Part shown: positions 1 to 45,514 of the stretch, piece by piece | Layout of the letters: every line of letters begins with the position of its first letter | How positions within the stretch are numbered: the first letter of the stretch is position 1 | Assembly: GCF_012912105.1 (NCBI RefSeq) | Contig: NZ_QMEA01000039.1 | Location: 1 to 45,514, forward strand | Direction: 5' to 3' | DNA: 45,514 bases | From: Brasilonema sp. UFV-L1 | Lineage (GTDB): Bacteria > Cyanobacteriota > Cyanobacteriia > Cyanobacteriales > Nostocaceae | The notes under the pieces: model-generated | Database searches by the model: none | The model's input: only the letters and a program-made list of their open reading frames with translations | Told to the model about the DNA's origin: nothing | Position numbers and translations under genes: made by a program

Positions 1-1720
1 GTAACCTTTCACACCCCCGCATTTAGTGCATGAAAATTAGCCAGTTAGCACGTAAGTAAAGAATTTCCGGCTCTAAAGATGGTAATGTAAGGCTTGACAG
101 GCACTTGAGACTTCATGAATCGACTGAGTAAAGATGACCGATCACAAATGAGCCGGGACTACTTCCAATCTCTGGACAAGGAGAAGTTGGTGGAAGTAGC
201 AGGTAATCTCCACGCCTTTGCAGTCGAACAATTAGAGCGATTAGAGCAGAATTCAAACAATAGTTCCAGACCGCCATCATCAGACAGCCCCTTCCTTAAG
301 GAAGCAGCAGAGTTTGACTGTGGAAAGACACAGACAGCCAATCAGCATAAACATCTAACTGATACTGAAGACCTTGAGAGTGAGAAAGTTGAGGAAAAGC
401 AAAAACAGAAGTCTATAGCTCAAGGGTTTGGGAAGCGATTGCCTTCGGCAGAGCTTCGCTTAACGCCGGGAAAGCAACCAGGAGCTAGGGGGATGTGGCG
501 GACAACGCCCTTAGTTCCAAAGATCACGATTCCTCATTATCCAGAAAATTGTGCTGCCTGCAATGCCGAACTGACAATAACATCAGACAACAAACCCTAT
601 ATGGGGTATTACGTCCTGGAACTAGAAAAACAGGAATCTGGTGTTGAGGTGATTTGCCAACTTCATCATTACTACTCAGCCACCTGTGAGTGTGGACACC
701 ATACCAAAGCTCTTCCTGGGTTTGGGTATGTGTCTGTAGTTTCGGGAAGGAGCAAAGATTTGCAATTACAGGAGTACGGACTAGTCGGACCGATGCTAGT
801 CTCCTTCATCGCCAGCCTTGCGGTGCGCTACCGGATGTCCCGACCCAAGATTCAAGAATTCTTACTTGAGTGGGTAAGTGTGGAACTAAGTATTGGCACT
901 CTAGACCGCTGCATTCGAGAAGCAGGGATTGCTTGCGCCCCAGTAGTTAAGCAGTTGCTTTGTGAATTGCAAGCAGCAGAAGTGATCCATATCGATGAAA
1001 CACCCTGGTACGAAAAGGGGAAATTGTGTTGGTTATGGGTGGCAATTACCAACACAATTGCGGTGTACCATATCGGTAGTCGCAGAAAAGAAGAATTGCT
1101 GCACCTGATAAGTAGCGCTTTTATCGGTTGGTTAGTCACCGATGGTTATGGAGCCTATAGCAGTTATGAAAAACGCCAGCACTGTCTGGCACACTTGATT
1201 CGCAAAGCGATCGCCCTGACCCAGGTTGTAAATAAAGAAGCTTCAGATTTAGGACAGTGGCTTCTAGAAGAGTTGAGGGAATTAATACAAACCCTCTCCT
1301 CTGGCGACGGGGATAACAGCGATGACCCAGTCCCCGGTCGCCTCTACCGGGTCTGCCTCCTGGGTCGCGCCGCAGAACATCCCAAATTAAAAGCTCTAGC
1401 ACAAGAGATTTTAAGGGATTGGGATGCTGTAGTTGCGTTTGTCTATCATCCAGGATTGCCACCTACCAATAATGAAGCTGAACGTGCTCTAAGACATGCA
1501 GTCATTGCACGACGGATTAGCTATGGTACACGTACCTCCGAAGGCAGTCTGGCTTATTGTTCTCTATTAAGCGTGATTGAAACCTGTCGGTTGAGAAAAG
1601 TCGATCCTTGGTATTACATTGCCCAAGTAATTGCTTTAGGCCGCAAAGGAATATTACCTCCTCTGATTTCCGTTGCTCTTTAAGTTGCTGCGCTATGGGG
1701 GGGGGAGAGTGAAAAGTTAC
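1..1720 (+). mobile_element. Complete IS66-family insertion sequence (single-ORF type)
   Basis: The element is bounded by imperfect inverted terminal repeats. The left end begins GTAACCTTTCACACCCCC at base 1; the right end, read on the minus strand from base 1720, begins GTAACTTTTCACTCTCCC. Termini starting GTAA are typical of IS66. The only gene inside is the DDE transposase (115-1683); the accessory tnpA and tnpB found in many IS66 members are absent, as in the shorter single-gene subgroup. IS66 usually duplicates 8 bp of target. The right flank is GTGAGCCT (1721-1728), but the left flank lies outside the window, so the duplication cannot be checked. Confidence 0.85.
115..1683 (+). CDS. IS66 family transposase
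   Basis: This 522-residue protein catalyses transposition of the surrounding IS66 element. It has the family order: an N-terminal helical region with the NSNNSSRPPSSDSPF motif (about 46-60), a zinc-binding region (C146, C149, C191, C193), then the catalytic DDE domain. The acidic triad can be read as D294 (HIDETPW), D343 (VTDGYGAY) and E454 (NNEAERALR), so the enzyme looks intact. The ATG at 115 gives a full-length product. One oddity is a short segment, LPSAELRLT (about 109-117), just before the conserved GKQPGARG. It is encoded by a sequence resembling an iterated cyanobacterial repeat (about 434-465) and is not expected in the family at that point. Confidence 0.93.
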   Translation: MNRLSKDDRSQMSRDYFQSLDKEKLVEVAGNLHAFAVEQLERLEQNSNNSSRPPSSDSPFLKEAAEFDCGKTQTANQHKHLTDTEDLESEKVEEKQKQKSIAQGFGKRLPSAELRLTPGKQPGARGMWRTTPLVPKITIPHYPENCAACNAELTITSDNKPYMGYYVLELEKQESGVEVICQLHHYYSATCECGHHTKALPGFGYVSVVSGRSKDLQLQEYGLVGPMLVSFIASLAVRYRMSRPKIQEFLLEWVSVELSIGTLDRCIREAGIACAPVVKQLLCELQAAEVIHIDETPWYEKGKLCWLWVAITNTIAVYHIGSRRKEELLHLISSAFIGWLVTDGYGAYSSYEKRQHCLAHLIRKAIALTQVVNKEASDLGQWLLEELRELIQTLSSGDGDNSDDPVPGRLYRVCLLGRAAEHPKLKALAQEILRDWDAVVAFVYHPGLPPTNNEAERALRHAVIARRISYGTRTSEGSLAYCSLLSVIETCRLRKVDPWYYIAQVIALGRKGILPPLISVAL

Positions 1721-12152: not shown

Positions 12153-13823
12153 GTGAAAAAAATCCTGATTTTGTCAGCCAATCCCCAGAATACAGACAAG
12201 CTACGTCTGGATGAAGAAGTGCGGGAAATTCAGGCTGGGCTGGAACGCGCTAAAAATCGGGAGAAGTTTGAAGTCATCTCTAGATGGGCGTTGCGTCCTG
12301 ACGATTTGCGCCGTGCGCTTTTGGATTTCGAGCCTGAAATTGTTCACTTTTCTGGACATGGGGCAGGAAATCAGGGCTTAGCGTTGGAAAATAATGCGGG
12401 AAACACGCAACTGGTGAGTACAGAGTCACTGGCAAAGCTATTTAAGTTATTTAAGGACAAAGTTGAGTGTGTCTTATTAAATGCCTGCTATTCAGAAGCG
12501 CAAGCTGAGGCAATTTACCAACATGTTAACTGCGTAGTTGGTATGAATCAGGCGATTGGGGATAGGGCTGCTATAGAGTTTGCAGTCGGATTTTACGACG
12601 CGTTGGGCGCTGGTAGATCCTATGAAGATGCTTATGAATTTGGTTGTAGTGCTATTGATTTAGAGGGTATTCCAGAGTTTTCAACTCCAGTGCTAAAAAG
12701 CAGGAAGACAACAAAAGATTCATCAATAATAAACAAAGAGATTTTTTACCAAGAGCTAAAACCAAACGAGATAGTAAAGACACAAACCGTTTCAGTAGTT
12801 GTCCCAGAAGATCCAGAAGGTCAAGTACCGCTAGATTCTGCATTTTATATTGAACGTCCACCAATTGAAGCAGATTGTTACGAAACGATTCTCAAACCTG
12901 GTGCTCTGATTCGGGTCAAAGCTCCTCGGCAAATGGGCAAAACTTCATTAATGACGCGGATTTTGCACCATGCGACTGGGCATGGTTATCAAGCAGCATC
13001 GTTGAACTTCCAGTCAGCAGATGCAGAATTTCTCAACAGCTTGGAGCAGTTCTTGCAGTGGTTTTGTGCCAGCACTACCTACGAACTCAATCTACCAGAT
13101 AAGTTAAGCGACTATTGGAAAGGTGGTATTCTGGGTAGCAAGAACAAATGTACAAATTACTTTCAGCGGTATTTGTTATCCGAGATTAACAGTCCAATTG
13201 CTTTGGGATTGGATGAAGTCGATGAAGTCTTCAAGCATCCCCAAATTGCTGCTGATTTTTTTGGGCTGCTGCGAGCATGGCATGAGCGAGCAAAAAATGA
13301 GCCAATCTGGAAAAAGCTGAGGCTGGTGATTGTTCATTCCAAAGAAGTTTACATCCCGCTCAACATTAATCAGTCCCCCTTCAACGTTGGCTTACCAGTT
13401 GAGTTGCCAGACTTGAATCAGGCACAAGTGCAAGAACTGGTACAGCGTCACGGACTTCAGTGGACTCAAGAACAACTAGAACAACTGATGATGCTTGTGG
13501 ATGGACATCCTTACTTGGTGCGGGTGGCTTTGTATCAAATTGCTCGTGGTAGGATGACTTTACAAAAGTTAAAGCAAGTCGCGCCTACAGAGGAAGGACC
13601 ATTATGTGACCACCTACGCCGCCACCTGCGAAATTTAGAAGAGGATGCAGAGTTGCTGGCTGCGGTTCAACTAGTTATGACATCAGATACACCAGTGGAT
13701 GTTGGTTCTGTGGAGGCGTTTAAGCTCCGGAGTATGGGAATCATCAAGTTTCAGGGCAATAAGGTGATGCCTTTGTGTGATTTGTATCGTCAGTACTTTC
13801 GCGATCGCCTAGAGGTTAGCTGA
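12153..13823 (+). CDS. CHAT-like protease domain fused to AAA-like NTPase
   Basis: A 556-residue cytoplasmic protein. The first 185 residues have a caspase-like (CHAT) fold: MKKILILSANP strand, EIVHFSGHGAG with H69, and VECVLLNACYSE with C112, giving the expected His-Cys dyad. After a linker (about 186-225) comes an AAA-like ATPase of the kind common in cyanobacteria, with APRQMGKTSL as the phosphate-binding loop (257-266) and ALGLDEVDEV as Walker B (about 349-358). The C terminus (about 460-556) is a helical winged-helix-like segment. The start is GTG at 12153, without a clear ribosome binding site. Its stop overlaps the start of the next gene by one base (TGATG), so the two are probably translationally coupled. 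Proteolytic activity is inferred from the dyad only. Confidence 0.82.
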   Translation: MKKILILSANPQNTDKLRLDEEVREIQAGLERAKNREKFEVISRWALRPDDLRRALLDFEPEIVHFSGHGAGNQGLALENNAGNTQLVSTESLAKLFKLFKDKVECVLLNACYSEAQAEAIYQHVNCVVGMNQAIGDRAAIEFAVGFYDALGAGRSYEDAYEFGCSAIDLEGIPEFSTPVLKSRKTTKDSSIINKEIFYQELKPNEIVKTQTVSVVVPEDPEGQVPLDSAFYIERPPIEADCYETILKPGALIRVKAPRQMGKTSLMTRILHHATGHGYQAASLNFQSADAEFLNSLEQFLQWFCASTTYELNLPDKLSDYWKGGILGSKNKCTNYFQRYLLSEINSPIALGLDEVDEVFKHPQIAADFFGLLRAWHERAKNEPIWKKLRLVIVHSKEVYIPLNINQSPFNVGLPVELPDLNQAQVQELVQRHGLQWTQEQLEQLMMLVDGHPYLVRVALYQIARGRMTLQKLKQVAPTEEGPLCDHLRRHLRNLEEDAELLAAVQLVMTSDTPVDVGSVEAFKLRSMGIIKFQGNKVMPLCDLYRQYFRDRLEVS

Positions 13824-16800
13824 TGAACACTGCACCTGACTCAGCCTACGAATATCAAGTCGGTGGCAGTTTACCAGTTTATGCTCCCACCTACGTCAGG
13901 CGACAAGCTGATGAAGACCTCTACAAGAACTTGAAGAAAGGAGAGTTCTGTTACGTCCTCAACTCCCGGCAGATGGGGAAATCGAGCTTGCGGGTGCAGG
14001 TGATGCAACAGTTGCAATCAGAGGGAGTCGCCTGTGCTGCTATTGATATTACTGCTATTGGCACCGCAGATATTACCCCAGAGCAATGGTATGCCGGGAT
14101 GATTGATAGTCTCGTAGGAAGTTTGAATCTTTACACCATATTTGATTTAGAAATTTGGTGGTCAGATAACAGTTTGCTTTCTCCAGTTCAGCGATTAAGC
14201 AAGTTTATTGAAACAGTTTTAATCCAAGACATTACTGAGAGAATAGTTATATTCATTGATGAAATTGACAGCATTCTTAGTCTCCAGTTCAATCTTGATG
14301 ACTTTTTTGCAGTCATCCGGGAGTGCTACAATCGTCGGGCAGATAAACCTGCTTATAACCGCTTAACCTTTGCCTTGATTGGAGTGTCTACGCCATCAGA
14401 CCTGATTCAAGACAAAAGGCGGACACCATTTAATATCGGTTGTGCAATTAACTTGAGCGGCTTCCAAGTACAAGAGGCGCAACCGCTAGCACGAGGACTA
14501 GCGGCGGTGGGAAATCCCCAAGTTTTGATGCAAACAGTGCTGGACTGGACTGGAGGACAGCCGTTTTTGACGCAAAAAGTTTGTAAGTTAGTGCTGAGTG
14601 CAGGTGCTGCTAACATTCGCATAGGAGAGGAAGTAGCTTGGGTAGAACGTCTGGTGCAAGAACGAGTTATTGAGAACTGGGAAGCGCAGGACGAACCAGA
14701 ACATCTAAAAACGATACGCGATCGCATCTTATGCAGTGGTGATCAACGTACTGGAAGACTACTAGGGTTGTGTCAGCAAATTTTGCAACAGGGAGAGATA
14801 GCAGCCGATGACAGCCCAGAACAAACAGAACTAAGGCTGACAGGATTGGTGGTGAAGCGTGATAGCAAGTTACGAATTTATAACCTTATTTATGCGGAGG
14901 TGTTTAACCAGGAATGGTGTGATAAGCAACTGGCAAAATTGCGTCCCTATGCTGATACACTGGATGCTTGGGTAAACTCCGACCGTCAGGATGAGTCGCG
15001 CTTGCTGCGAGGACAGGCTTTACAGGATGCTCAGGAATGGTCAGTAGGTAAAAGTTTGAGCGATTTGGATTATCAGTTCTTAGCTGCTAGTCAGGAGTTA
15101 GATAAGCGAGACGTTCAAAAAAGACTGCAAGCAGAAGAACGGGCAAAGCAAGTTTTGGAAAGAGCAAATCGCAAAGCAAATCGACGGATTCGTATTGGCT
15201 TTGTGGTATTAGGGGTGACTTTGGCAGGCGCAGTTGCATCGGGAATATTTGCTCAATGGAGTACTCAACAAGCAAACGCTGCTAAAGAAAAACAAAAAAA
15301 TACCGAGGCACAAATTAATAAGATTATCAAAGAAAAAGATTTGGCATCAACAGGAGTAGAAATGGCTAAGGCAGTTTTAAAAAAAGCGAAACAAGAAACT
15401 AACAAAATTCGCTCAGAAAATCAACACATATTGAAAGAAGTAGCAACTGCCAAGGCAGATTTCAAAAAAGCGAAACAAGAAACTAACAAAACTCGCTTAC
15501 AAAATCAGCAAATATCAGCAGAAAACCAGCGAATATCTAAACAAGCAGAAAATGCAGAAGAAAGACGCAATGCAGCAGAAGCTAAAGCTAAAGAAGCCCA
15601 AAAAACCTTCAAGCAAGCCCAAAGAGACCTTCAAGCCGTGCAACTAGAGCAAGCTGGAATTAAAGCTTTACAACAGTTTGAGTCTGGTGAAGGTATAGAG
15701 GCTCTGCTGTTAGCAATTGACAGCGGACAAAAGTTACAGAAATTGCTGAAAGAGGGAACTTTGGCAACCTACCCAAACTCTGTTCTGGTTGCTCTACAAA
15801 CGATTCTAGATAATCCTAAAGAACAGAATCGGCTATCTGGTCACCAAAGAGTAGTCAACACCACAAGTTTCAGTCCTAATGGGCAACTGATAGCTACAGC
15901 AGGAGCAGACGGTATAGTTAAAATATGGAATCAGTCCGGAGAACTACAAACTCAGTGGCAAGCCCACCAAGGTGAGATTGATGTTTTGCAATTTGCTCCA
16001 GATGGACAGCACCTTGCAACAACTACGAAAAACAATACTGTACAACTCTGGAATATTTCTGGAAAGCAACTAGCTAAATGGCAGGTTCCCCAAATTAGCA
16101 GTGTGAGTTTTAGCTCAGTTAAGAATATCCTAGCCACAGGAGGACATGATAGTAAAATTCGGCTGTGGGACTGGTCAGGAAAACAGCTAGCTCAGTTGAA
16201 TGGTAATCAACAGGCTGTTTACAGCGTAAATTTTAGCCCTGATGGGCAACACTTGGTTACGACAGGAGAAGATAAAATCCTACTTTGGGATCTCTCTACA
16301 CAGCAATCAATTACATTGGTGGAAAAATCATCCGGAAGTGCAGCTTTTAGCCCTGATGGACAACGCATAGCTGCTTCAGACGGAGATGGTGTAGCACGAA
16401 TTTGGAATCTTTCAGGGAAGCAGCTAGAGGAATTTGATGTCGGCAACGGGATCTGGATCAGTAGCATCAGTTTTAGTCCAGATGGACAGCGTTTGATGAC
16501 GGCAGGAGGGAAATCTGTGCAAATTTGGGATTTATCAAAACCTCAAATCCGTTTATTTACAAAGTTCAATTCGATAATTGGTGTTAAGCAAGCAAGGCTT
16601 AGCCCTGATGGAAAGCGTATTCTAATATTATCCGCAAGTGATATAGCCCGAATTTGGAAACCGTCAGAAAGGCAAAAAATTTTACTGAAAAGTGAGTGGG
16701 GTATCAGAGATGCAACTTTTAGCCCTGATGGAAAGCGAATTGCCACAGCAGGACAGGACAACACAGTTCGGCTTTGGGACTATCTATCAGGCAAGCAACT

Positions 16801-17653
16801 GGCTGTATTAAACGGGCACACATGGCACGTTGAGAGAGTAGACTTTAGTCCAAATGGTGAGTATTTAGCCAGCACCTCACGAGATGGCACAGTCCGCTTG
16901 TGGAATCTCTCTTCCCAGCAACCGATTGCTTCATTGAAAGGGTATCAGAACGGAGGTGGAGATGTTGATTTTAGTCCAAATGGGCTGCTAATTGCTACTG
17001 CTAGCCAAGATGGTACTCGACTGTGGAATCTTACAGGGAAGGAGCTAGCTTTACTGCAAGGACATATAGGAGGAAGAGTTAATCGTGTCAGATTCAGCCC
17101 TAATGGGGAACAACTAGCAACAGCTGGAGCCGATGGCACTGTCAGACTGTGGAACATTGCTTCTAGAAAGCAACTCGTCTCACTTGAAGGCCATCACGGA
17201 GATATTTTTCGTGTCAGATTCAGCCCTAATGGGGAACAACTAGCAACAGCTGGAGCCGATGGCACTGTCAGACTGTGGAACCTTTCCTCAAAGCAGCATT
17301 TGGTTTTGAAGGGACATCAAGGTTACGTTTATAGCGTGAATTTTAGCCCTGATGGAAAAAGCATAGCCAGCGCGGGGGAAGATAGTATAGTCAGGGTGTG
17401 GAATCTTTTTGGTCAGCAATTAACACAGTTTTATACTCACCAGTATGATATCTGGAGTGTAAAGTTTACTCCTGATGGGCAAAGTCTTGTAACAGCCGGA
17501 CAAGATGGCACAGTACGGTTGTGGAAGTTGGAGGGATTCAATAATCTAGATAAACTGCTTGAGCGAAGTTGTCAGTCGCTCAAAGATTACCTTGCTAGCA
17601 ATCCTAAAGGGCAGCATCCCAAATGTGTAAGTTATATTAAACCCAGGTTATGA
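13823..17653 (+). CDS. AAA-like NTPase - transmembrane - coiled coil - WD40 protein
   Basis: A 1276-residue protein. Residues 1-380 hold an AAA-like ATPase of the same kind as in the upstream gene, with LNSRQMGKSSLRV (46-58) and Walker B IVIFIDEIDS (141-150). A hydrophobic segment (about 455-478, GFVVLGVTLAGAVASGIFA) should anchor it in the membrane. A charged coiled coil with repeated KKAKQETNK units follows (about 485-620). About 14 WD40 blades (about 672-1245) then form one or two propellers, each ending in variants of VRLWNL. A Cys-containing cap (RSCQSLKDYLASNP) closes the protein, as in many cyanobacterial WD40 proteins. The WD40 part probably senses or binds a partner and the ATPase transmits it. 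Two neighbouring blades carry an identical 72-base stretch. Confidence 0.85.
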   Translation: MNTAPDSAYEYQVGGSLPVYAPTYVRRQADEDLYKNLKKGEFCYVLNSRQMGKSSLRVQVMQQLQSEGVACAAIDITAIGTADITPEQWYAGMIDSLVGSLNLYTIFDLEIWWSDNSLLSPVQRLSKFIETVLIQDITERIVIFIDEIDSILSLQFNLDDFFAVIRECYNRRADKPAYNRLTFALIGVSTPSDLIQDKRRTPFNIGCAINLSGFQVQEAQPLARGLAAVGNPQVLMQTVLDWTGGQPFLTQKVCKLVLSAGAANIRIGEEVAWVERLVQERVIENWEAQDEPEHLKTIRDRILCSGDQRTGRLLGLCQQILQQGEIAADDSPEQTELRLTGLVVKRDSKLRIYNLIYAEVFNQEWCDKQLAKLRPYADTLDAWVNSDRQDESRLLRGQALQDAQEWSVGKSLSDLDYQFLAASQELDKRDVQKRLQAEERAKQVLERANRKANRRIRIGFVVLGVTLAGAVASGIFAQWSTQQANAAKEKQKNTEAQINKIIKEKDLASTGVEMAKAVLKKAKQETNKIRSENQHILKEVATAKADFKKAKQETNKTRLQNQQISAENQRISKQAENAEERRNAAEAKAKEAQKTFKQAQRDLQAVQLEQAGIKALQQFESGEGIEALLLAIDSGQKLQKLLKEGTLATYPNSVLVALQTILDNPKEQNRLSGHQRVVNTTSFSPNGQLIATAGADGIVKIWNQSGELQTQWQAHQGEIDVLQFAPDGQHLATTTKNNTVQLWNISGKQLAKWQVPQISSVSFSSVKNILATGGHDSKIRLWDWSGKQLAQLNGNQQAVYSVNFSPDGQHLVTTGEDKILLWDLSTQQSITLVEKSSGSAAFSPDGQRIAASDGDGVARIWNLSGKQLEEFDVGNGIWISSISFSPDGQRLMTAGGKSVQIWDLSKPQIRLFTKFNSIIGVKQARLSPDGKRILILSASDIARIWKPSERQKILLKSEWGIRDATFSPDGKRIATAGQDNTVRLWDYLSGKQLAVLNGHTWHVERVDFSPNGEYLASTSRDGTVRLWNLSSQQPIASLKGYQNGGGDVDFSPNGLLIATASQDGTRLWNLTGKELALLQGHIGGRVNRVRFSPNGEQLATAGADGTVRLWNIASRKQLVSLEGHHGDIFRVRFSPNGEQLATAGADGTVRLWNLSSKQHLVLKGHQGYVYSVNFSPDGKSIASAGEDSIVRVWNLFGQQLTQFYTHQYDIWSVKFTPDGQSLVTAGQDGTVRLWKLEGFNNLDKLLERSCQSLKDYLASNPKGQHPKCVSYIKPRL
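17084..17281 (+). repeat. Identical 72-bp duplication inside adjacent WD40 blades
   Basis: Bases 17084-17155 and 17210-17281 are identical over 72 bases and are offset by 126 bases, exactly one 42-residue WD40 blade. Other blades of the same gene are far more divergent, so this is a recent duplication or gene conversion event. Confidence 0.9.
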
Positions 17654-31690: not shown

Positions 31691-33124
31691 CTACCCCTGC
31701 GAGTGATACTTATCTTCAAGTTTCAATGCTTTTGCTTTAAACTTAGGTAGAAGCCACCCAAGATTTAATGCATCAGTGACTGACGAACCTATCGAAGCTA
31801 AGTACCGCACAGTCCGAGTTAACAACTCAGATTCAACATCACTCGATTTCATGTAGCGGGTGATGTTGTTGTCTGTGCCTCGAATGCGAATATTTATCGA
31901 CGCATTCAGATCAGCTTGGATCACGTCCCCCGTGTACCGGATAAAGCAATCGCGCTCCCGACGACCTAAAAGCGTCCCGGTTGCAGAATCAACTTGCGAC
32001 GTGTAAGCAGGATTTACCACTGACACTTTTGATCCTGTCTCCAATGAGATTTTCTCAATCGAAGCTTGTAGCTCACCGTTCATCCATTGGTTCAGCTTGC
32101 GGTTGATGTGTTTTGCTTGCTGCTTACCAATAATCGGTTGAGTGAGATCTTCGCAGAAGATTTCAACGGGTGTTGTGATATTCAGTCTTAAATCTTTACG
32201 AATGAAATTCTGTATGGTCGCCTTCTCACGCTGTAGACGACGTTTCTTAGTTTTATAACCTAAATTATTTTTGAGAATAGTTGCAGACTTAGCAGGATTA
32301 ATCCTGGATATCGCAAAGAGTCTATAACGATTACGATTAGTTTTAGTAATCCTATTTGTCTTTGCTGTCAGCAGTTTACCTAAACCCTCAGCAATTTTAG
32401 TACCTTCTGACGTGTAGTACCCTTCTGTATACCCTTTATCAATTCCTAACTTTTTATTAGGTTCCCCCTGTGGCAGAATTAGAGTTTTAGTCCGAATACA
32501 ATGAACCTCTAAACCCCCATGTTCGTTGCGGATTAACCGAATTTGACCTTTAATAATATGACGACAACGCAATTTTAAAGTGATGCGTTTGCCTCTAGTT
32601 AACCCGGCAACTTCTAACTGTATAGTATTTCTGGTTAGACGCTTAGAGGAATATCCTGCACCCTGGTAAACAATCTGATTTCTGACAAACGTATGACCTT
32701 TCAAGTACTGTTTTCTAAACTGACGATGTAGCCAGTTGTCAACAGTTGGATTGGTCTTAAGTAGGTCTATTAAACGTTTGCGCTTGTCGGGGTCATTGGT
32801 GTGGTTGTAGATATCTTGAGTTAAGAAAGTTTTCGCAGATTCCTGTTGGGCGCTAATAGCTTTCATCGTGTCATTTACCGACCATTCCCATAGTTTACCA
32901 GGAAGACCAATATCATCCGGTTTTAAGACTGTTCTAACTATAGGGTCTGCTTTTTTCCAATCTAGACCCCAGCCTTGTAAAGAGCCGAGTTTGTTGTAAG
33001 TTAATCTTCTTGGTACACCACACAGGTGCATGATTCGGTCAATCTGTGATTCGTCTGAGCAAGAAACAACAGGAACAACCTGAGTGTAGGTGTATTCAGT
33101 TTTCTGTTGCTTCTTTTTTTCCAT
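31691..33124 (-). CDS. tnpB: TnpB-family RNA-guided nuclease-like protein of an IS607-type element
   Basis: A 477-residue TnpB-like protein. The split RuvC nuclease motifs are present: LGIDKGYTEGY (D229), EIFCEDLTQP (E325) and IQADLNASINI (D405). In standard TnpB the segment between SQ and the last motif is a four-cysteine zinc finger. Here residues 376-404 read TSQVDSATGTLLGRRERD..., with only one cysteine (C393), so the zinc finger is replaced by a metal-free variant. The N-terminal half (about 1-225) shows a recognition/wedge-like region rich in basic residues. It lies 53 bases downstream of tnpA on the same strand. The catalytic triad looks intact, so nuclease activity is plausible. Confidence 0.88.
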   Translation of the reverse strand: MEKKKQQKTEYTYTQVVPVVSCSDESQIDRIMHLCGVPRRLTYNKLGSLQGWGLDWKKADPIVRTVLKPDDIGLPGKLWEWSVNDTMKAISAQQESAKTFLTQDIYNHTNDPDKRKRLIDLLKTNPTVDNWLHRQFRKQYLKGHTFVRNQIVYQGAGYSSKRLTRNTIQLEVAGLTRGKRITLKLRCRHIIKGQIRLIRNEHGGLEVHCIRTKTLILPQGEPNKKLGIDKGYTEGYYTSEGTKIAEGLGKLLTAKTNRITKTNRNRYRLFAISRINPAKSATILKNNLGYKTKKRRLQREKATIQNFIRKDLRLNITTPVEIFCEDLTQPIIGKQQAKHINRKLNQWMNGELQASIEKISLETGSKVSVVNPAYTSQVDSATGTLLGRRERDCFIRYTGDVIQADLNASINIRIRGTDNNITRYMKSSDVESELLTRTVRYLASIGSSVTDALNLGWLLPKFKAKALKLEDKYHSQG

Positions 33125-40867: not shown

Positions 40868-41017
40868 GATGATGTGCTACAAATTATAGTTTATACTAGG
40901 AATAGTATGGACATTATCATCTGACGAGAGTGTATTAAGACAAAGATTCAGCAACAGCTCATTCGGAATTTGAACGAACGGAAATGAAGATAAATATAAA
41001 GATGAAACTCTCATAGA

Positions 41018-41101
41018 ATTGTTTATCTAAGAACATTGAGTCATAAAACGACTTAACCTTATCTGAGAGCGGTGTCTTTCCTTCTTCCTCGCTCTGTCCC
41101 T
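41018..41101 (+). promoter_or_regulatory. Leader conserved between the two HEAT-NACHT paralogues
   Basis: The roughly 85 bases before this start codon closely match 45069-45154 before the second paralogue: AATTGTTT, then GAGTCAT, then a near-identical AACGACTTAA block, then GAGAGCGG and TCTTCCT, up to ATGCTGAAAAC. Because the spacer upstream is unrelated, the leader was duplicated together with the gene and may hold the promoter or 5' UTR control. Confidence 0.7.
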
Positions 41102-44100
41102 ATGCTGAAAACTAACCAAAAAATCAGAAAGCTATCTCCCATTTTCCTTTTTCCTTTCACTGTTTTTCTTGTTCTTCTGTTATCTCTTCCTTGGGTAAAT
41201 GCCAAAGAAGCGCCCAAACCCAAGCCGCAAGATTGGGAGATAAAAGGTATTGTCGCAGCGCTAAGAGATCCAGGCGCTAACGTAAGATTGAAAGCAGCGG
41301 ACAAGTTGGCATTATATCAACTAGATAACCCCAACTCGCTCATTCAAAATTATAAAGATGTGGTGGATGAGCTTGGCAAGCAGTTGGAAGACAAAGACGC
41401 GGTTTCTCTGAACGCCGCAGCAGTTGCATTGGGACAGATGCAAGCCAAAGATTATACCTCAAAGATTGCCGAACTGCTCAAAAATTCTGACATCAATGTT
41501 CGTTCTGCTGCAGCAGCTGCGCTGGGACAAATGCAAGCCAGAGAGTATGCCTCAACGCTTGTTGAATTACTCAAAGATTCTGACATCAATGTCCGTAATG
41601 CTGCAGTAGAAGCGCTAGGACAGATGCAAGCCACAGAAGTCGCCCCAACAGTTGTCGAACTTCTCAAAAATTCTGACGTCAGTGTTCGTAATGCAGCAGT
41701 AGAAGCGCTAGGACAGATACAAGCTACAGAGTATACCTCAACACTTGTCGAACTGCTCAAAGATTCTGACATCAGTGTTCGTAATGCTGCAGCCGAAGCA
41801 CTAGGACAGATGCAAGCCAAAGAAGTTGCCCCAACGCTTGTCGAACTGCTTAAAGATTCTAACATCAGTGTCCAGTATGCCTCAGCAAGAGCATTAGGGC
41901 AGATGCAAGCTACAGAAGTTGCCCCAAAAATTGCCGAACTGCTCAAAGATTCTGACTCAAGTGTTCGTAATGCTGCAGCAGATGCACTAGGACAGATACA
42001 AGCTAAAGAGTATACCTCAACGCTTGTTGGACTCCTCAAAGACGTCAGTGTTCGTAATACTGCACTAGAAGCGCTTGGGCAGATGCAAGCCAAAGAGTAT
42101 GCCCCAAACAAAGTTGCCGAACTGCTCAAAGATTCTGACATCAGTGTTCGTAACACCGCAGCATTTGCATTGGGGCAGATGCAAGCCAAAGAAGTTGCCC
42201 CAAACAAGATTGCCGAACTGCTCAAAGATTCTGACTCAAGTGTTCGTAATACCGCAGTAGTTGTATTGGGGCAGACGCAAGCCAAAGAAGTCGCCTCAAA
42301 GAAGATTGCTGAGTTGCTCAAAGATTCTGACATTAGTGTTCGTAATGCTGCAGCACTTGCATTGGGGCAGATGCAAGCCAAAGAGTATGCCTCAACGCTT
42401 GCTGAACTGCTCAAAAATTCTAACATCAGTGTCCGTTATACCGCAGCAAGAGCACTGGGGCAAATGCAAGCCAAAGAGTATGCCCCACAACTTGCCGAAC
42501 TGCTCAAAGATTCTGACTCAAGTGTTCGTAATGCCGCAGTAGAAGCACTCGCAAAGCTAGAACAGCAAGATTTCTCGTTTGTTGTGCAAGTTCTGGACGT
42601 AGTTCAGCAATATCCTTCTGAAGTTGGGCAGCTCAGATTCTTAGCTCATTTTATAGGTAGTGGGGAGCAAGATGTAGAACCTCTGATGCAATGGGTTGGT
42701 AAGCCCAAAAGTAAACCAGAAAAATTGACTCGCGAACAGGGTAAGAAAACAATGGAAGTTTTCGAGAAAACTTGGAAACTGAGTGAGTCTCTGCCCGACT
42801 TGCGACAAGAACTAGCAGCAGAAATTGCCGAAGTTGCTAAAAAAGTTTCTTGGAAAGCACAAGACATCACTTTACTTCAAAATCATTATAAGCGCCTCCA
42901 AAAAGCCAAATCCACTCAGGCTGATGCAGTCAAGTCAGTTATAAATAATCTGGAGTTTTGGAAGTACTTTTTCAAAGCACGAAACACCATCCTCATTCAT
43001 GCTAGCTTTTGGCTTGCCCTCATCTTTGCTTATCCCAAATTTCCCCAAATCCAAGCAATCTTTTTCTGGAACCCTTGGGTACGTCGCATTTTGGGTGTTG
43101 GCTACGTCGGCTTTCTCCTCACCTGGGTTCCCTTTCTGCGCCGCAAACTGTTTGAACCGTTTAAGCCTTCGCTACTCGCAGATGCAGGGTTAGATAATTT
43201 CAACCTTCAAGCATACTTCCCAGAATCTAAGGTGAAATATTTGGGATTATTAGGATCAGGAAAAAACAAAGCTATTACCGAAGCATTGCCCAAGATTAAT
43301 GGGCAAATTGTCTTAATCGGTGATTCTGGCTTAGGCAAGTCAATGTTTCTGCGCTATCTAGCAAAAACCTCCGAGCAAATAGTCGTCTACTTACCTGCCC
43401 AAAAATGTGAAAAAGGTGTGATTGAGGCAATTCAAGCAAAGCTACATGGACACGCGCAAGATGCAGAATTCCTCAAAAACTTGATTTACAGTGGCGCGAT
43501 AGATATCTATATTGATGGACTCAACGAAGTCACGGCTGACACGCGGGCAAAAATCACCCAGTTTGTTGAGTTCTATTTCCGGGGTAATATCATCATGACA
43601 ACCCAGCCCTTGGAATGGATACCTCCGTCAACAGCAAAGGTATATGAATTGCAACCTCTTGAAGGCGAACAAATTGAGCAGTTTTTGAGTTTGCGTCAGT
43701 TGCGACTGCCCAAAGATGCCAAAGTACAAGGTGATAAATATCAGCAAGCTTACAAGAACTATTTAGCAGATGCTCTTAAAGAACAGCAATCCCCTGAAGA
43801 GTTAGATGCAGCACAAAAAATTCTTTCTAACCCAATGGATTTATCACTAGTTGCCTTGATGCTATCACAAGGTAAACAGCCCAATTTGTTTTATCTACAA
43901 GAAGAACAATACAATTTGATGGCAGCAGAATACCAGCGAGAATGGAATCAGGAATTTCCGTTAAAGAAATTTTCTGAAGCAGTGTATGAAATGCGACTGA
44001 ATGAGCAACAAGCGCTCCCTGCAGATGAATTTTATCAAGCTTTAATTTCTTTAGAAGACGAGAAATATAAAATGGTCGTCAGCCGTCAGTGGCTGGATGA

Positions 44101-44374
44101 CAAAGGAGAAGCGAAGAAAGAATGGTATTTTCGCCATGACAAAATTATGGATTTCTTCCTTTTGCAAAACTTTTTAGGCAAAGGTGAAGAAGTGGAAAAA
44201 CGTTTAATTGACCACATGACTAAACCGCATTTTCACGGAGTTTACTATTTACTCGCAACCTTGCTAGAGTTGGATGCGGCTAAAGAATTGCGGGAGAGGT
44301 TGATTCAATACGCTGCGAATATTAAAGATCATGCAGTGAGTGATACATTTGTGCAGTTGTTGAGAGCGAGATGA
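41102..44374 (+). CDS. Membrane-anchored HEAT-repeat protein with NACHT-like NTPase
   Basis: A 1090-residue protein from ATG 41102 (a GTG ten codons earlier is less likely, since the second paralogue also starts at MLKT). An N-terminal hydrophobic segment (about 10-34) is a signal anchor, followed by KEAPKPKPQ. Residues about 115-488 hold twelve HEAT-like repeats of about 31 residues (KEYASTLVELLKDSDISVRNAAAEALGQMQA type). A helical linker leads to one or two transmembrane segments (about 625-683: NTILIHASFWLALIFA; GVGYVGFLLTWVPF). The NTPase follows: Walker A LIGDSGLGKSMFL (about 738-750), Walker B IYIDGLNEV (about 802-810), MTTQP sensor. The C terminus (about 900-1090) is helical. The layout fits a STAND-type receptor; there is no visible effector domain. 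Confidence 0.8.
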   Translation: MLKTNQKIRKLSPIFLFPFTVFLVLLLSLPWVNAKEAPKPKPQDWEIKGIVAALRDPGANVRLKAADKLALYQLDNPNSLIQNYKDVVDELGKQLEDKDAVSLNAAAVALGQMQAKDYTSKIAELLKNSDINVRSAAAAALGQMQAREYASTLVELLKDSDINVRNAAVEALGQMQATEVAPTVVELLKNSDVSVRNAAVEALGQIQATEYTSTLVELLKDSDISVRNAAAEALGQMQAKEVAPTLVELLKDSNISVQYASARALGQMQATEVAPKIAELLKDSDSSVRNAAADALGQIQAKEYTSTLVGLLKDVSVRNTALEALGQMQAKEYAPNKVAELLKDSDISVRNTAAFALGQMQAKEVAPNKIAELLKDSDSSVRNTAVVVLGQTQAKEVASKKIAELLKDSDISVRNAAALALGQMQAKEYASTLAELLKNSNISVRYTAARALGQMQAKEYAPQLAELLKDSDSSVRNAAVEALAKLEQQDFSFVVQVLDVVQQYPSEVGQLRFLAHFIGSGEQDVEPLMQWVGKPKSKPEKLTREQGKKTMEVFEKTWKLSESLPDLRQELAAEIAEVAKKVSWKAQDITLLQNHYKRLQKAKSTQADAVKSVINNLEFWKYFFKARNTILIHASFWLALIFAYPKFPQIQAIFFWNPWVRRILGVGYVGFLLTWVPFLRRKLFEPFKPSLLADAGLDNFNLQAYFPESKVKYLGLLGSGKNKAITEALPKINGQIVLIGDSGLGKSMFLRYLAKTSEQIVVYLPAQKCEKGVIEAIQAKLHGHAQDAEFLKNLIYSGAIDIYIDGLNEVTADTRAKITQFVEFYFRGNIIMTTQPLEWIPPSTAKVYELQPLEGEQIEQFLSLRQLRLPKDAKVQGDKYQQAYKNYLADALKEQQSPEELDAAQKILSNPMDLSLVALMLSQGKQPNLFYLQEEQYNLMAAEYQREWNQEFPLKKFSEAVYEMRLNEQQALPADEFYQALISLEDEKYKMVVSRQWLDDKGEAKKEWYFRHDKIMDFFLLQNFLGKGEEVEKRLIDHMTKPHFHGVYYLLATLLELDAAKELRERLIQYAANIKDHAVSDTFVQLLRAR
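41446..42565 (+). repeat. Array of about 12 units of 93 bp encoding HEAT repeats
   Basis: About twelve consecutive units of 93 bases (one of 87 and three of 96) encode the HEAT repeats. Units share long near-identical stretches such as CTAGGACAGATGCAAGCC and CTGCTCAAAGATTCTGAC. The high DNA similarity points to recent expansion by unequal exchange. All ORFs on the opposite strand in this range are by-products of the repeat. Confidence 0.9.
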
Positions 44375-45068
44375 TACCTGTTAATACTCAAAATTCCTTC
44401 TGGTGCGAGACGCACTCGCGCTCAAAACCTCACCCTGCCCTGTCGGGCATCCCTCTCCTTGCTGAACCTCACCCTGCCCTGTCGGGCATCCCTCTCCTTG
44501 CTGAACCTCACCCTGCCCTGTCGGGCATCCCTCTCCTTGCTAAGGAGAGGGAAAGATTTTAGCGCAGCTAAAAGCGAGGGCCAACTCGTCCAACTCGTTC
44601 CCATGCTCTGCATGGGAATGCAGTACAGGAGGTTCCGCCTCCCAATGATTATATTGCAATACGCTTGGGTTAAGCATTTTTTCTCTTCTGTTTTCTTCTC
44701 TGGTGCGCTCTCTGTCTTGGAAAGCTCTGAGCCTCGCTCCTTTGAGGAGCTTACGCGCTCCGGAGGAAACCTCCGCTCAGACTTTCCGCTGCGCCTGGTG
44801 CGGTATGCCCTCCGGGCACGCTACGCGCTCCGTTAAAAAATTAACTTTGACAAAGAGTTTTAGCCTTAACTGAACCGTATTGGATTATATTGAGGCAGCA
44901 GCCCACAGTTATGCATTCCCTGGCAGAGCCAGGGAACGAGGAATGCAGAGCCAGGGAACGAGGAATGCAGAGCCAGGGAACGAGAAGCAGCAACAACTCA
45001 ACCGGAATCTACCTGAAATAAGATGAAGAAGAAGTAAAAGATAAAACTTTTGCTCTCAAGTGAATATA
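44375..45068. repeat. Spacer of dispersed and tandem repeats between the two paralogues
   Basis: Three head-to-tail copies of a 39-bp unit start at 44426, 44465 and 44504 (AACCTCACCCTGCCCTGTCG and so on). The last is followed by the hairpin CTCTCCTT-GCT-AAGGAGAG. Hairpins with perfect 9-bp stems lie at 44598-44618 (TTCCCATGC/GCATGGGAA) and 44916-44936 (TTCCCTGGC/GCCAGGGAA). Three copies of a 22-bp unit (GCAGAGCCAGGGAACGAG...) start at 44923, 44945 and 44967. GC-rich hairpin repeats fill 44700-44835. The ORFs here are translations of the repeats. Confidence 0.85.
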
Positions 45069-45154
45069 ATTGTTTCTTTGGAAACATGAGTCATTTAACG
45101 ACTTAATATTATATCGAGAGCGGCATCTCCCCCTCTTCCTGGCTGTGTCCTCCA

Positions 45155-45514
45155 ATGCTGAAAACTGCCCGCAACACTAGAAAGCTGTTTCCCTTTCTCC
45201 TTTTCCCTTTCATTCTTGTTCTTATTCTCCTTTTCTCCCTGTCTTGGGTGATTGCCAAAGAAGCACCCAAGCCCAAGCCGCAACTGTGGCATATTAACGG
45301 CATAGTCGCTGCCCTCGACGATGGCTATGACAGAGTGAAGCAATATGCTTTGGAAAAATTAGCAGAATATAAGCCGCAAGACTTGAAAAACGTGGTGAAG
45401 AAACCGGAGGATATTGCTCAGAAAGCTGCCAACATCCTCAAAGATGAAAAAGTTGACTACAACCTTCGTTATGGTGCGGCAGTGGCATTGGGCAACCTGG
45501 GGGAAGCTGCGGCG
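45155..45514 (+). CDS. Second HEAT-repeat/NACHT paralogue (partial, cut by the window edge)
   Basis: Only the first 120 codons are in the window. They start MLKTARNTRKLFPFLLFPFI with a hydrophobic anchor (to about residue 30), then KEAPKPKPQLWHINGIVAALDDG, closely matching the gene at 41102 (KEAPKPKPQDWEIKGIVAALRD). A HEAT-like repeat begins (NLRYGAAVALGNLGEAAA). The leader upstream is shared with the first copy. The rest of the protein, including any NTPase domain, lies outside the window and is only inferred. Confidence 0.8.
   Translation, partial: MLKTARNTRKLFPFLLFPFILVLILLFSLSWVIAKEAPKPKPQLWHINGIVAALDDGYDRVKQYALEKLAEYKPQDLKNVVKKPEDIAQKAANILKDEKVDYNLRYGAAVALGNLGEAAA

What the first reader, a model, noticed from the sequence alone, without database searches (positions are those of the whole stretch)
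41018..45514. Tandem paralogues of a membrane HEAT-repeat protein (first copy with a NACHT-like NTPase) sharing the same leader
A complete copy (41102-44374) and the start of a second (45155 onward) share the N-terminal anchor, the KEAPKPKPQ segment and about 85 bases of upstream sequence, though the spacer between them is unrelated repeats. HEAT sensor, transmembrane hinge and NTPase in one chain resemble STAND immune receptors, but the HEAT array would face the other side of the membrane from, or be tethered away from, the NTPase, which is an unusual topology.
Basis: partly seen in the sequence, partly recalled or inferred. Interest (0 to 1): 0.7.

Follow-up and report, generated by a model that had tools for sequence, protein, structure and literature searches.

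The report
Membrane-spanning NACHT receptor with swapped ectodomains
A cyanobacterial gene pair encodes what looks like a surface receptor: a secreted repeat domain outside the cell joined through the membrane to an immune-type molecular switch inside, and the outer part has been swapped between related genes while the inner part stayed the same.

Summary
ORF1 (41102-44374, 1090 aa) has a signal peptide, a KEAPKPKPQ leader, a HEAT array, a cap, a transmembrane segment and a NACHT-like STAND NTPase. ORF2 (45155 to contig end) shares upstream DNA, signal peptide and leader, but starts a different class of HEAT ectodomain; its NTPase lies beyond the contig. Relatives are patchy: strong matches in 38 of 149 relatives and 19 of 386 genomes over the phylum, plus rare Bacteroidia, alphaproteobacterial and one myxobacterium-like member. 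Signal peptides and cysteine-poor ectodomains suggest the HEAT array is outside the cytoplasm; the NTPase should then face the cytosol if it uses ATP. Topology is not proved. The new result is ectodomain exchange. Two ectodomain classes are cleanly separate on the cap tree but need 6 changes on the NTPase tree (AU p=1.4e-5 against one clade). Three pairs with 94-96% identical NTPases have caps 45-49% identical. At one syntenic site median dS is 1.05 for the cap, 0.31 for TM+NTPase and 0.39 for a flanking gene. Best reading: a transmembrane STAND receptor for an envelope ligand, probably non-self. Ligand and role are inferred.

The parts
40978..41101 (+). upstream region of ORF1, shared with ORF2
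   Evidence: 72-80% identity to the region upstream of ORF2; 72-82% to L051, L052, L111
41102..44374 (+). ORF1, 1090 aa: signal peptide, leader, HEAT ectodomain class A, cap, TM, NACHT-like NTPase
41102..41203 (+). signal peptide of ORF1, predicted cleavage VNA|KE
   Evidence: home-made rule, not SignalP
41204..41230 (+). KEAPKPKPQ leader of ORF1
   Evidence: leader matches in relatives
41237..42640 (+). N-cap and HEAT array, class A (93-nt spacing, about 31-aa units, ALGQMQAKEYAP)
42641..42985 (+). C-terminal cap of the ectodomain
   Evidence: goes with the HEAT class
42986..43042 (+). transmembrane segment 1
   Evidence: Kyte-Doolittle peak of at least 1.3 in 33 of 34 rows
43088..43138 (+). 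second, marginal hydrophobic segment (ILGVGYVGFLLTWVPFL)
   Evidence: reaches 1.3 in 9 of 34 rows
43319..43342 (+). Walker A, GDSGLGKS
43511..43528 (+). Walker B, IDGLNE
43598..43609 (+). sensor-1 motif TTQP
   Evidence: the name sensor 1 is recalled
43829..43843 (+). NPMDL motif (HD1-like)
44129..44143 (+). FRHDK motif (winged-helix-like histidine)
   Evidence: the role of the histidine is recalled
44426..44988 (.). spacer with dispersed repeats
44991..45154 (+). upstream region of ORF2
   Evidence: 86-88% identity to upstream of the single genes in L111, L051, L052
45155..45514 (+). ORF2, 120 aa seen, open at contig end: signal peptide, leader, class B ectodomain start
45300..45320 (+). 5' border of the exchanged ectodomain in ORF2
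   Evidence: identity to L111/L051/L052 falls from 72-98% to 48-68% here

Best explanation
ORF1, and by inference ORF2, are membrane-spanning STAND receptors. A Sec-type signal peptide puts the HEAT solenoid and its cap outside the cytoplasm. The chain crosses back once at TM1, and the NACHT-like NTPase with its winged helix sits in the cytosol. An envelope ligand, most likely a phage or competitor component or a product of envelope damage, binds the HEAT ectodomain. This releases the NTPase to exchange ADP for ATP, oligomerise and signal. In variant members the C-terminus carries an output part: an EAD11 adaptor in Bacteroidia, a second STAND-like ATPase in long cyanobacterial forms. New specificities arise by exchanging the ectodomain as a cassette, with the upstream/signal-peptide/leader DNA and the TM/NTPase DNA as flanking homology. 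Shown: architecture, NACHT-like sequence, two ectodomain classes, mosaic history with two borders. Inferred from sequence: topology, route of exchange. By analogy only: ligand, oligomerisation, output, non-self role.
For: NACHT-like core: hhalign 98.2%, 176 columns; P-loop G and K and D-G-L-N-E invariant over 44 rows. Ectodomain outside: signal-peptide rule met by 60 of 78 ORFs, including one Bacteroidia and 4 of 5 rhizobial-type members; ectodomain cysteine 1.2 per 1000 residues against 9.2 on the NTPase side in 54 proteins, and 5.9 per 1000 in 13 other HEAT spans of the genome. A small related protein with a signal-peptide-like start follows the gene in 5 of 5 rhizobial-type loci. EAD11 ends both tandem copies of L126. 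Exchange: class A/B needs 1 change on the cap tree and 6 on the NTPase tree, AU p=1.4e-5; NTPase against cap identity; dS contrast; borders.
Against: Charges round the TM region are inconclusive, and a two-segment hairpin, which would put the NTPase on the HEAT side, is not excluded. In the window protein itself the cysteine contrast is only 0 against 1, and six relatives have 3-4 ectodomain cysteines. The Pfam NACHT score is below its cut-off (14.4 against 26.7 bits), and the NACHT set is nearer to nSTAND1 (99.2%, 210 columns) than to this family. Sensor 1 has Q where NACHT usually has R (recalled). No effector or conserved partner was found for the short form. Phage records have none and the defence library nothing credible for the NTPase. 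No structure could be predicted. ORF2's NTPase is unseen.
Confidence: 0.5

Rival explanations
1. The ectodomain simply evolves fast under weak constraint; there was no exchange. Classes A and B diverged in place.
For: HEAT repeats can turn over by recombination inside the array (repeats), which can mimic replacement. The identity step at TM1 also appears in a same-class pair (L060-L120).
Against: The contrast is in synonymous sites too: cap dS 1.08-1.87 against 0.14-0.52 in TM+NTPase for five A-B pairs; at one syntenic site medians 1.05, 0.31 and, for a flanking gene, 0.39. Two A-A pairs show no excess (0.18 against 0.23; 0.20 against 0.51). The NTPase tree rejects class A as one clade.
Confidence: 0.07
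2. Both hydrophobic segments cross the membrane, so HEAT array and NTPase lie on the same side: either all is cytosolic with an unusual anchor, or the NTPase is outside and does not use ATP.
For: The second segment is strongly conserved and reaches the threshold in 9 of 34 rows; charges do not decide.
Against: Signal-peptide features in several phyla and low cysteine; invariant Walker A lysine; EAD11 and ATPase regions fused C-terminally.
Confidence: 0.2
3. A cell-cell recognition or envelope-state sensor of filamentous cyanobacteria, not a defence receptor; exchange of ectodomains would change kin type.
For: Most named relatives are filamentous Nostocales; exchange of a surface domain fits allorecognition as well as immunity.
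Against: Members on rhizobial plasmids, in a Bacteroidia bin and on a myxobacterium-like contig; in Mesorhizobium a trypsin-like/EEP fusion gene lies close upstream, though not in the other rhizobial loci.
Confidence: 0.25
4. Housekeeping membrane protein, for example a chaperone-like scaffold.
For: Conserved synteny in a glyS/murD group (5 of 80 loci) and a Nostoc group (20 of 80 loci).
Against: Strong matches in only 38 of 149 relatives and 19 of 386 genomes; split copies and remnants; exchange of the ectodomain.
Confidence: 0.05
5. ORF2 is an assembly artefact or a truncated pseudogene.
For: The contig ends inside it and no second NTPase is in the assembly.
Against: It differs from ORF1 (48% identity), and its upstream DNA is 86-88% identical to that of single genes in relatives.
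Confidence: 0.15

Closest known systems
NACHT-clade STAND NTPases (bacterial NACHT proteins, NLRs)
   Same: P-loop, DGLNE Walker B, NP motif and winged-helix-like FRHDK motif; hhalign 98.2% over 176 columns
   Different: Repeats are N-terminal and carry a signal peptide; a TM segment separates them from the NTPase; sensor 1 is TTQP; Pfam NACHT cut-off not reached. A usual order, NTPase then HEAT without visible signal peptide, exists in the same genome on contig C72.
NTP-dependent conflict systems (Kaur et al. 2020, PMC7159879; passages only)
   Same: STAND NTPases and HEAT repeats among the parts of systems of multicellular prokaryotes; a membrane two-gene system (EACC1) there includes cases with an extracellular PBP domain
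   Different: The passages do not describe a secreted HEAT ectodomain in one chain with a NACHT-like NTPase.
EACC2/TRADD-N proteins (PMC8195603; passages only)
   Same: Variable regions that can be extracellular with TM helices or contain STAND NTPases; bivalve expansions with an extracellular domain, a TM helix and, in the variable region, STAND NTPases
   Different: Constant parts are other domains (EACC2, caspase, DED, TRADD-N); no HEAT ectodomain in the passages read.
Toll-like receptors and plant receptor kinases (recalled)
   Same: Working plan: repeat ectodomain, membrane pass, cytosolic signalling domain
   Different: No homology claimed; the signalling domain is a STAND NTPase.
KAP family NTPases (recalled)
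   Same: Membrane-associated P-loop NTPases with repeats in some members
   Different: KAP TM helices lie inside the P-loop domain; here the TM lies before Walker A.
DGR-diversified putative antigen sensors (PMC10907252; search listing and start of abstract only)
   Same: Diversification of putative sensors in multicellular bacteria
   Different: Here whole ectodomains are exchanged; I did not search for a retroelement.

Membership tests
STAND/NACHT NTPase | Walker A P-loop | tested here: met
   GDSGLGKS; P-loop G and K invariant in 44 rows
STAND/NACHT NTPase | NACHT-type Walker B (hhhhDGxxE, recalled) | tested here: met
   D-G-L-N-E invariant in 44 rows; rhizobial plasmid members, not among the 44, read IDGYNE
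STAND/NACHT NTPase | sensor-1 arginine (recalled as typical) | tested here: inconclusive
   TTQP in at least 90% of rows: Q instead of R; whether R is required I do not know
STAND/NACHT NTPase | profile-level homology | tested here: met
   hhalign 98.2%, E 4.2e-14, 176 columns against 17 NACHT-matching proteins of the genome; 66%, 18 columns against 9 nSTAND1 proteins; the two reference sets share one protein and match each other at 99.2%, 210 columns
STAND/NACHT NTPase | Pfam NACHT gathering score | tested here: not met
   14.4 bits for the window; 19.3, 19.4 and 18.5 for three relatives; cut-off 26.7. Hence NACHT-like, not filed as PF05729
STAND/NACHT NTPase | NTP-dependent oligomerisation | not testable with these tools
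KAP NTPase | TM helices between Walker A and Walker B (recalled) | tested here: not met
   hydrophobic segments lie before Walker A
EAD-coupled conflict system | effector-associated domain | tested here: not met
   none on the window's cap-TM-NTPase part; EAD11 only on the two L126 proteins (E 5.2e-11 and 2e-7)
Catalogued anti-phage systems (PADLOC 2.0.0) | credible family match of the signalling part | tested here: not met
   best E 0.0018 (a cap stretch) and 0.0063 (C-terminal stretch); the stronger HEAT matches lie in the repeats

The most novel reading that the evidence does not exclude
Bacteria have a cell-surface counterpart of NLRs: a one-chain receptor with an extracytoplasmic HEAT ectodomain and a cytosolic NACHT switch, whose specificity is renewed by homologous exchange of the ectodomain between conserved arms. 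Tandem genes carrying different ectodomain classes, as in this window, are the donor and recipient store for this exchange.
Probability: 0.4. Interest if true: 0.9.

Novelty: new variant of a known kind. Interest (0 to 1): 0.72.

Why it matters
STAND immune receptors are known mainly as cytosolic sensors (recalled). A version with its repeat sensor outside the membrane would let bacteria read an attack before entry, with the plan of a Toll-like receptor. The mosaic history makes sensor diversification directly testable: natural alleles with near-identical signalling parts and very different ectodomains are a ready set for mapping specificity.

Tried and rejected
Plain tandem duplication was rejected: the two ORFs belong to different ectodomain classes, and ORF2's upstream DNA is nearer to single-gene relatives (86-88%) than ORF1's is (72-82%). 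A housekeeping role was disfavoured by distribution. A conserved short-form partner: the commonest neighbour (20 of 80 loci) is a 158-aa gene that marks one syntenic site; only neighbours of 150 aa or more were clustered. The continuation of ORF2 on another contig: none found; C72 has HEAT repeats at its edge, but that ORF runs off at its 3' side and belongs to a NACHT protein. Solved structures by sequence: nothing significant (NLRC4 at E 0.4). Charge rule for topology: inconclusive. More Bacteroidia members: only L126's own genome of 22 in its order. Literature: searches listed no paper that I could recognise as describing this architecture; most subscription papers are not held. Passages were read only in PMC7159879 and PMC8195603.

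A control was mended: the 6.5 cysteines per 1000 counted the longest ORF of each locus, some of them not HEAT proteins and one twice. One search repeats it on HEAT spans only: 16 cysteines in 2709 residues of 13 spans (15 loci, 2 duplicates left out), 5.9 per 1000. Two of the 13 (L010, L019) have signal-peptide-like starts and no cysteine in the span.

Rows dropped before counts; of the L051-L130 ORFs only those with one BLAST piece above 500 bits and a P-loop fitting my pattern entered, so long forms L124, L125, L127-L129 and L051 (GNSGLGKS) were left out; 13 short and 1 long row had no HEAT class; pattern B was widened in that script before the tree; 53 of 70 rows; the class labels preceded the tree, the AU test was chosen after seeing the tree; 54 of 78 for cysteine; 33 of 34; 13 of the 20 syntenic loci, picked by hand among those with a single long ORF; saturated dS set to 3.0.
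Full report
Where it is. The window is a whole contig (C270) of an 8.3-Mb genome of 337 contigs. The named relatives are mostly Nostocales, and the best matches come from Scytonema and Tolypothrix. ORF1 is 41102-44374; ORF2 starts at 45155 and runs off the contig.

Anatomy of ORF1. A positively charged start, a hydrophobic stretch and VNA|KE make a Sec-type signal peptide, followed by KEAPKPKPQ. Then come an N-cap, a HEAT array (Pfam HEAT_2 E=1e-78), a cap of about 115 residues, a firm hydrophobic segment (aa 629-647), a marginal second one (aa 663-679), and the NTPase with Walker A, Walker B, TTQP, NPMDL and FRHDK. The NTPase scores below Pfam's NACHT cut-off (14.4 bits). Profile-profile comparison with 17 NACHT-matching proteins of the same genome gives 98.2% over 176 columns; the same test against nine nSTAND1 proteins aligns only 18 columns round the P-loop. 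The two reference sets share one protein and match each other better (99.2%, 210 columns) than either matches the family, so this is a distant NACHT-like branch.

Which side of the membrane. A simple signal-peptide rule is met by 60 of 78 family ORFs. Of the 18 that fail, 16 are ORFs that lack the leader (split, truncated or masked); L144 and L148 miss the threshold narrowly. Cleavage-like sites in Bacteroidia (LLNA|QL), an alphaproteobacterial bin (AVA|AD) and the myxobacterium-like contig (AQA|AQ) follow unrelated leader sequences. Over 54 proteins, ectodomains hold 1.2 cysteines per 1000 residues and 39 have none; the NTPase side holds 9.2 per 1000 and always some. Six ectodomains have 3-4. 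Thirteen other HEAT spans of the genome hold 5.9 per 1000. In the window protein itself the contrast is just 0 against 1. The first segment passes the hydropathy threshold in 33 of 34 rows, the second in 9 of 34. One pass puts the NTPase in the cytosol; two would put it outside, without ATP. Charges do not settle it. I take one pass as likely, at about 0.7.

Spread. In one search, 48 of 149 genomes, the own genome included, match at E<=1e-3; by my reading of the table 38 are strong (E below 1e-80) and 10 weak or remnants. Over the phylum 19 of 386 match at E<=1e-20, the own genome and some short remnants included. The named-genome scan confirmed 105 relatives and kept 80 loci. Outside cyanobacteria: a Bacteroidia bin with two tandem copies (L126; no other genome of 22 in its order), an alphaproteobacterial bin (L130; 3 of 397 genomes in its order, itself included), three rhizobial plasmids, and one contig of the viral collection that looks bacterial, myxobacterium-like, by eye (L144). 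A Calothrix plasmid also has one. Phage records: none of 50,697.

Variable ends. The short form ends after the NTPase. Twelve of the 80 loci have a long form with a second ATPase region weakly like nSTAND1 (L114: E 7e-6, just below cut-off). All 12 carry a further ATPase gene in the locus, directly downstream in the four mapped. Both L126 proteins end in EAD11 above its cut-off. Two rhizobial members scanned show no HEAT family and an unassigned C-terminal region. In all five rhizobial-type loci the gene is followed by a small protein with a signal-peptide-like start, the five 50-81% identical to each other where compared. In Mesorhizobium a trypsin-like/EEP fusion and a hypothetical gene precede it; in the other four loci I saw neither, by annotation or eye.

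Exchange of the ectodomain. Two HEAT classes occur. Class A has about 31-aa units (ALGQMQAKEYAP); class B about 35-aa units (ALGNLGEAAKPY; length by eye). ORF1 is A. ORF2 starts as B: its N-cap averages 66% identity to 24 B proteins and 36% to 5 A proteins, ORF1 included. On the cap tree A and B are the two sides of one branch (support 100); on the NTPase tree of the same 53 rows the class changes 6 times, and one A clade is rejected (AU p=1.4e-5). Conversely, the long form needs 1 change on the NTPase tree and 2 on the cap tree, where one long clade is rejected (p=2e-4). These are quick trees, and ORF1 has a long end branch. L114 (B) and L121 (A) are sisters with support 98, with 91% NTPase and 47% cap identity. 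Three A-B pairs have 94-96% NTPase and 45-49% cap identity; a fourth, L053-L116, 87% and 57%. L054 (A) sits at the same site as B genes, marked by a 158-aa gene upstream.

Synonymous sites speak for exchange against fast evolution. Five A-B pairs: cap dS 1.08-1.87, TM+NTPase 0.14-0.52. Five B-B pairs: cap 2.2- to 7.7-fold higher, so replacement also happens inside class B. Two A-A pairs: no excess. Thirteen syntenic loci, 78 pairs: medians 1.05 cap, 0.31 TM+NTPase, 0.39 flanking gene. The cap exceeds twice the NTPase value in 48 of 78 pairs, and the flanking gene does in 10 of 78.

Borders. ORF2 against L111, L051 and L052 is 72-98% identical in DNA from 44991 through the leader to about 45310, then 48-68%. 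L051 and L052 have class A caps, and L111's N-terminus is nearer to ORF1's (72%) than to ORF2's (57%). ORF1 keeps 68-88% to L111 over the compared stretch except its first 40 bases. At the other end, identity rises to 90-100% at the TM1 codons in three A-B pairs, from 68-78% in the 40 bases before and mostly 50-75% further up. In L053-L116 and L114-L121 the rise is gradual. The B-B pair L060-L120 shows the same step. Conserved arms on both sides make homologous exchange the simple route; this is inference.

How it most likely works. Sensor outside, switch inside, output at the C-terminus or in trans. Ligand and output are unknown for the short form. Defence against phage or competitors fits patchiness, split copies, exchange and EAD11; kin recognition fits most of this too.

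Novelty. The searches made and the passages read in PMC7159879 and PMC8195603 show no secreted HEAT ectodomain in one chain with a NACHT-like NTPase. They do show other conflict-type proteins with extracellular domains, so the idea of a membrane-spanning member is not without precedent. The genome has 35 NACHT and 37 nSTAND1 matches, so STAND proteins as such are ordinary here.

Noticed in passing
window 44426-44542; L121 9053-9367; L114 9064-9250: The dispersed repeat of the spacer (AACCTCACCCTG..CTTGCTG) also lies in frame inside the NTPase gene of the long-form relatives L114 and L121, read as NLTLPYRASLSLLRRGKDFSEAKSEG, in a loop after sensor 1; another repeat-like peptide (STPPLAPPRKRGG) sits before Walker A in some members.
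   Followed up: partly
window 12153-13823 and 13823-17653: By eye, a CHAT/caspase-like protein with an ATPase region, directly followed by a gene for an ATPase with WD40 repeats: looks like another conflict-type pair.
   Followed up: no
L151 2-2113 and 2382-4586 (contig C72 of the same genome): Two neighbouring NACHT genes, one with HEAT repeats after the NTPase and no visible signal peptide: the usual order, a useful contrast.
   Followed up: partly
L108 7854-9437: A member whose HEAT array is missing: signal peptide and leader run almost straight into TM and NTPase, at the glyS/murD site.
   Followed up: no
L132 10202-10702, L133 10229-10729, L134 10016-10522, L147 7050-7589, L148 5518-6024: A small protein with a signal-peptide-like start and a YLRFDLPAGW-type motif follows the rhizobial family gene in 5 of 5 loci; the two scanned reach no Pfam family.
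   Followed up: partly
L144 7274-8311: Next to the family gene on a viral-collection contig lies a protein weakly like the eCIS core domain (17.3 bits, below cut-off 22).
   Followed up: no
L010 and L019 (other contigs of the same genome): Two further HEAT proteins with signal-peptide-like starts and no cysteine in the HEAT span: exported HEAT proteins may be commoner here than this family.
   Followed up: no
window 115-1683 and 31691-33124: Transposase-like genes by eye (IS66-like and TnpB-like); not checked by a family search.
   Followed up: no
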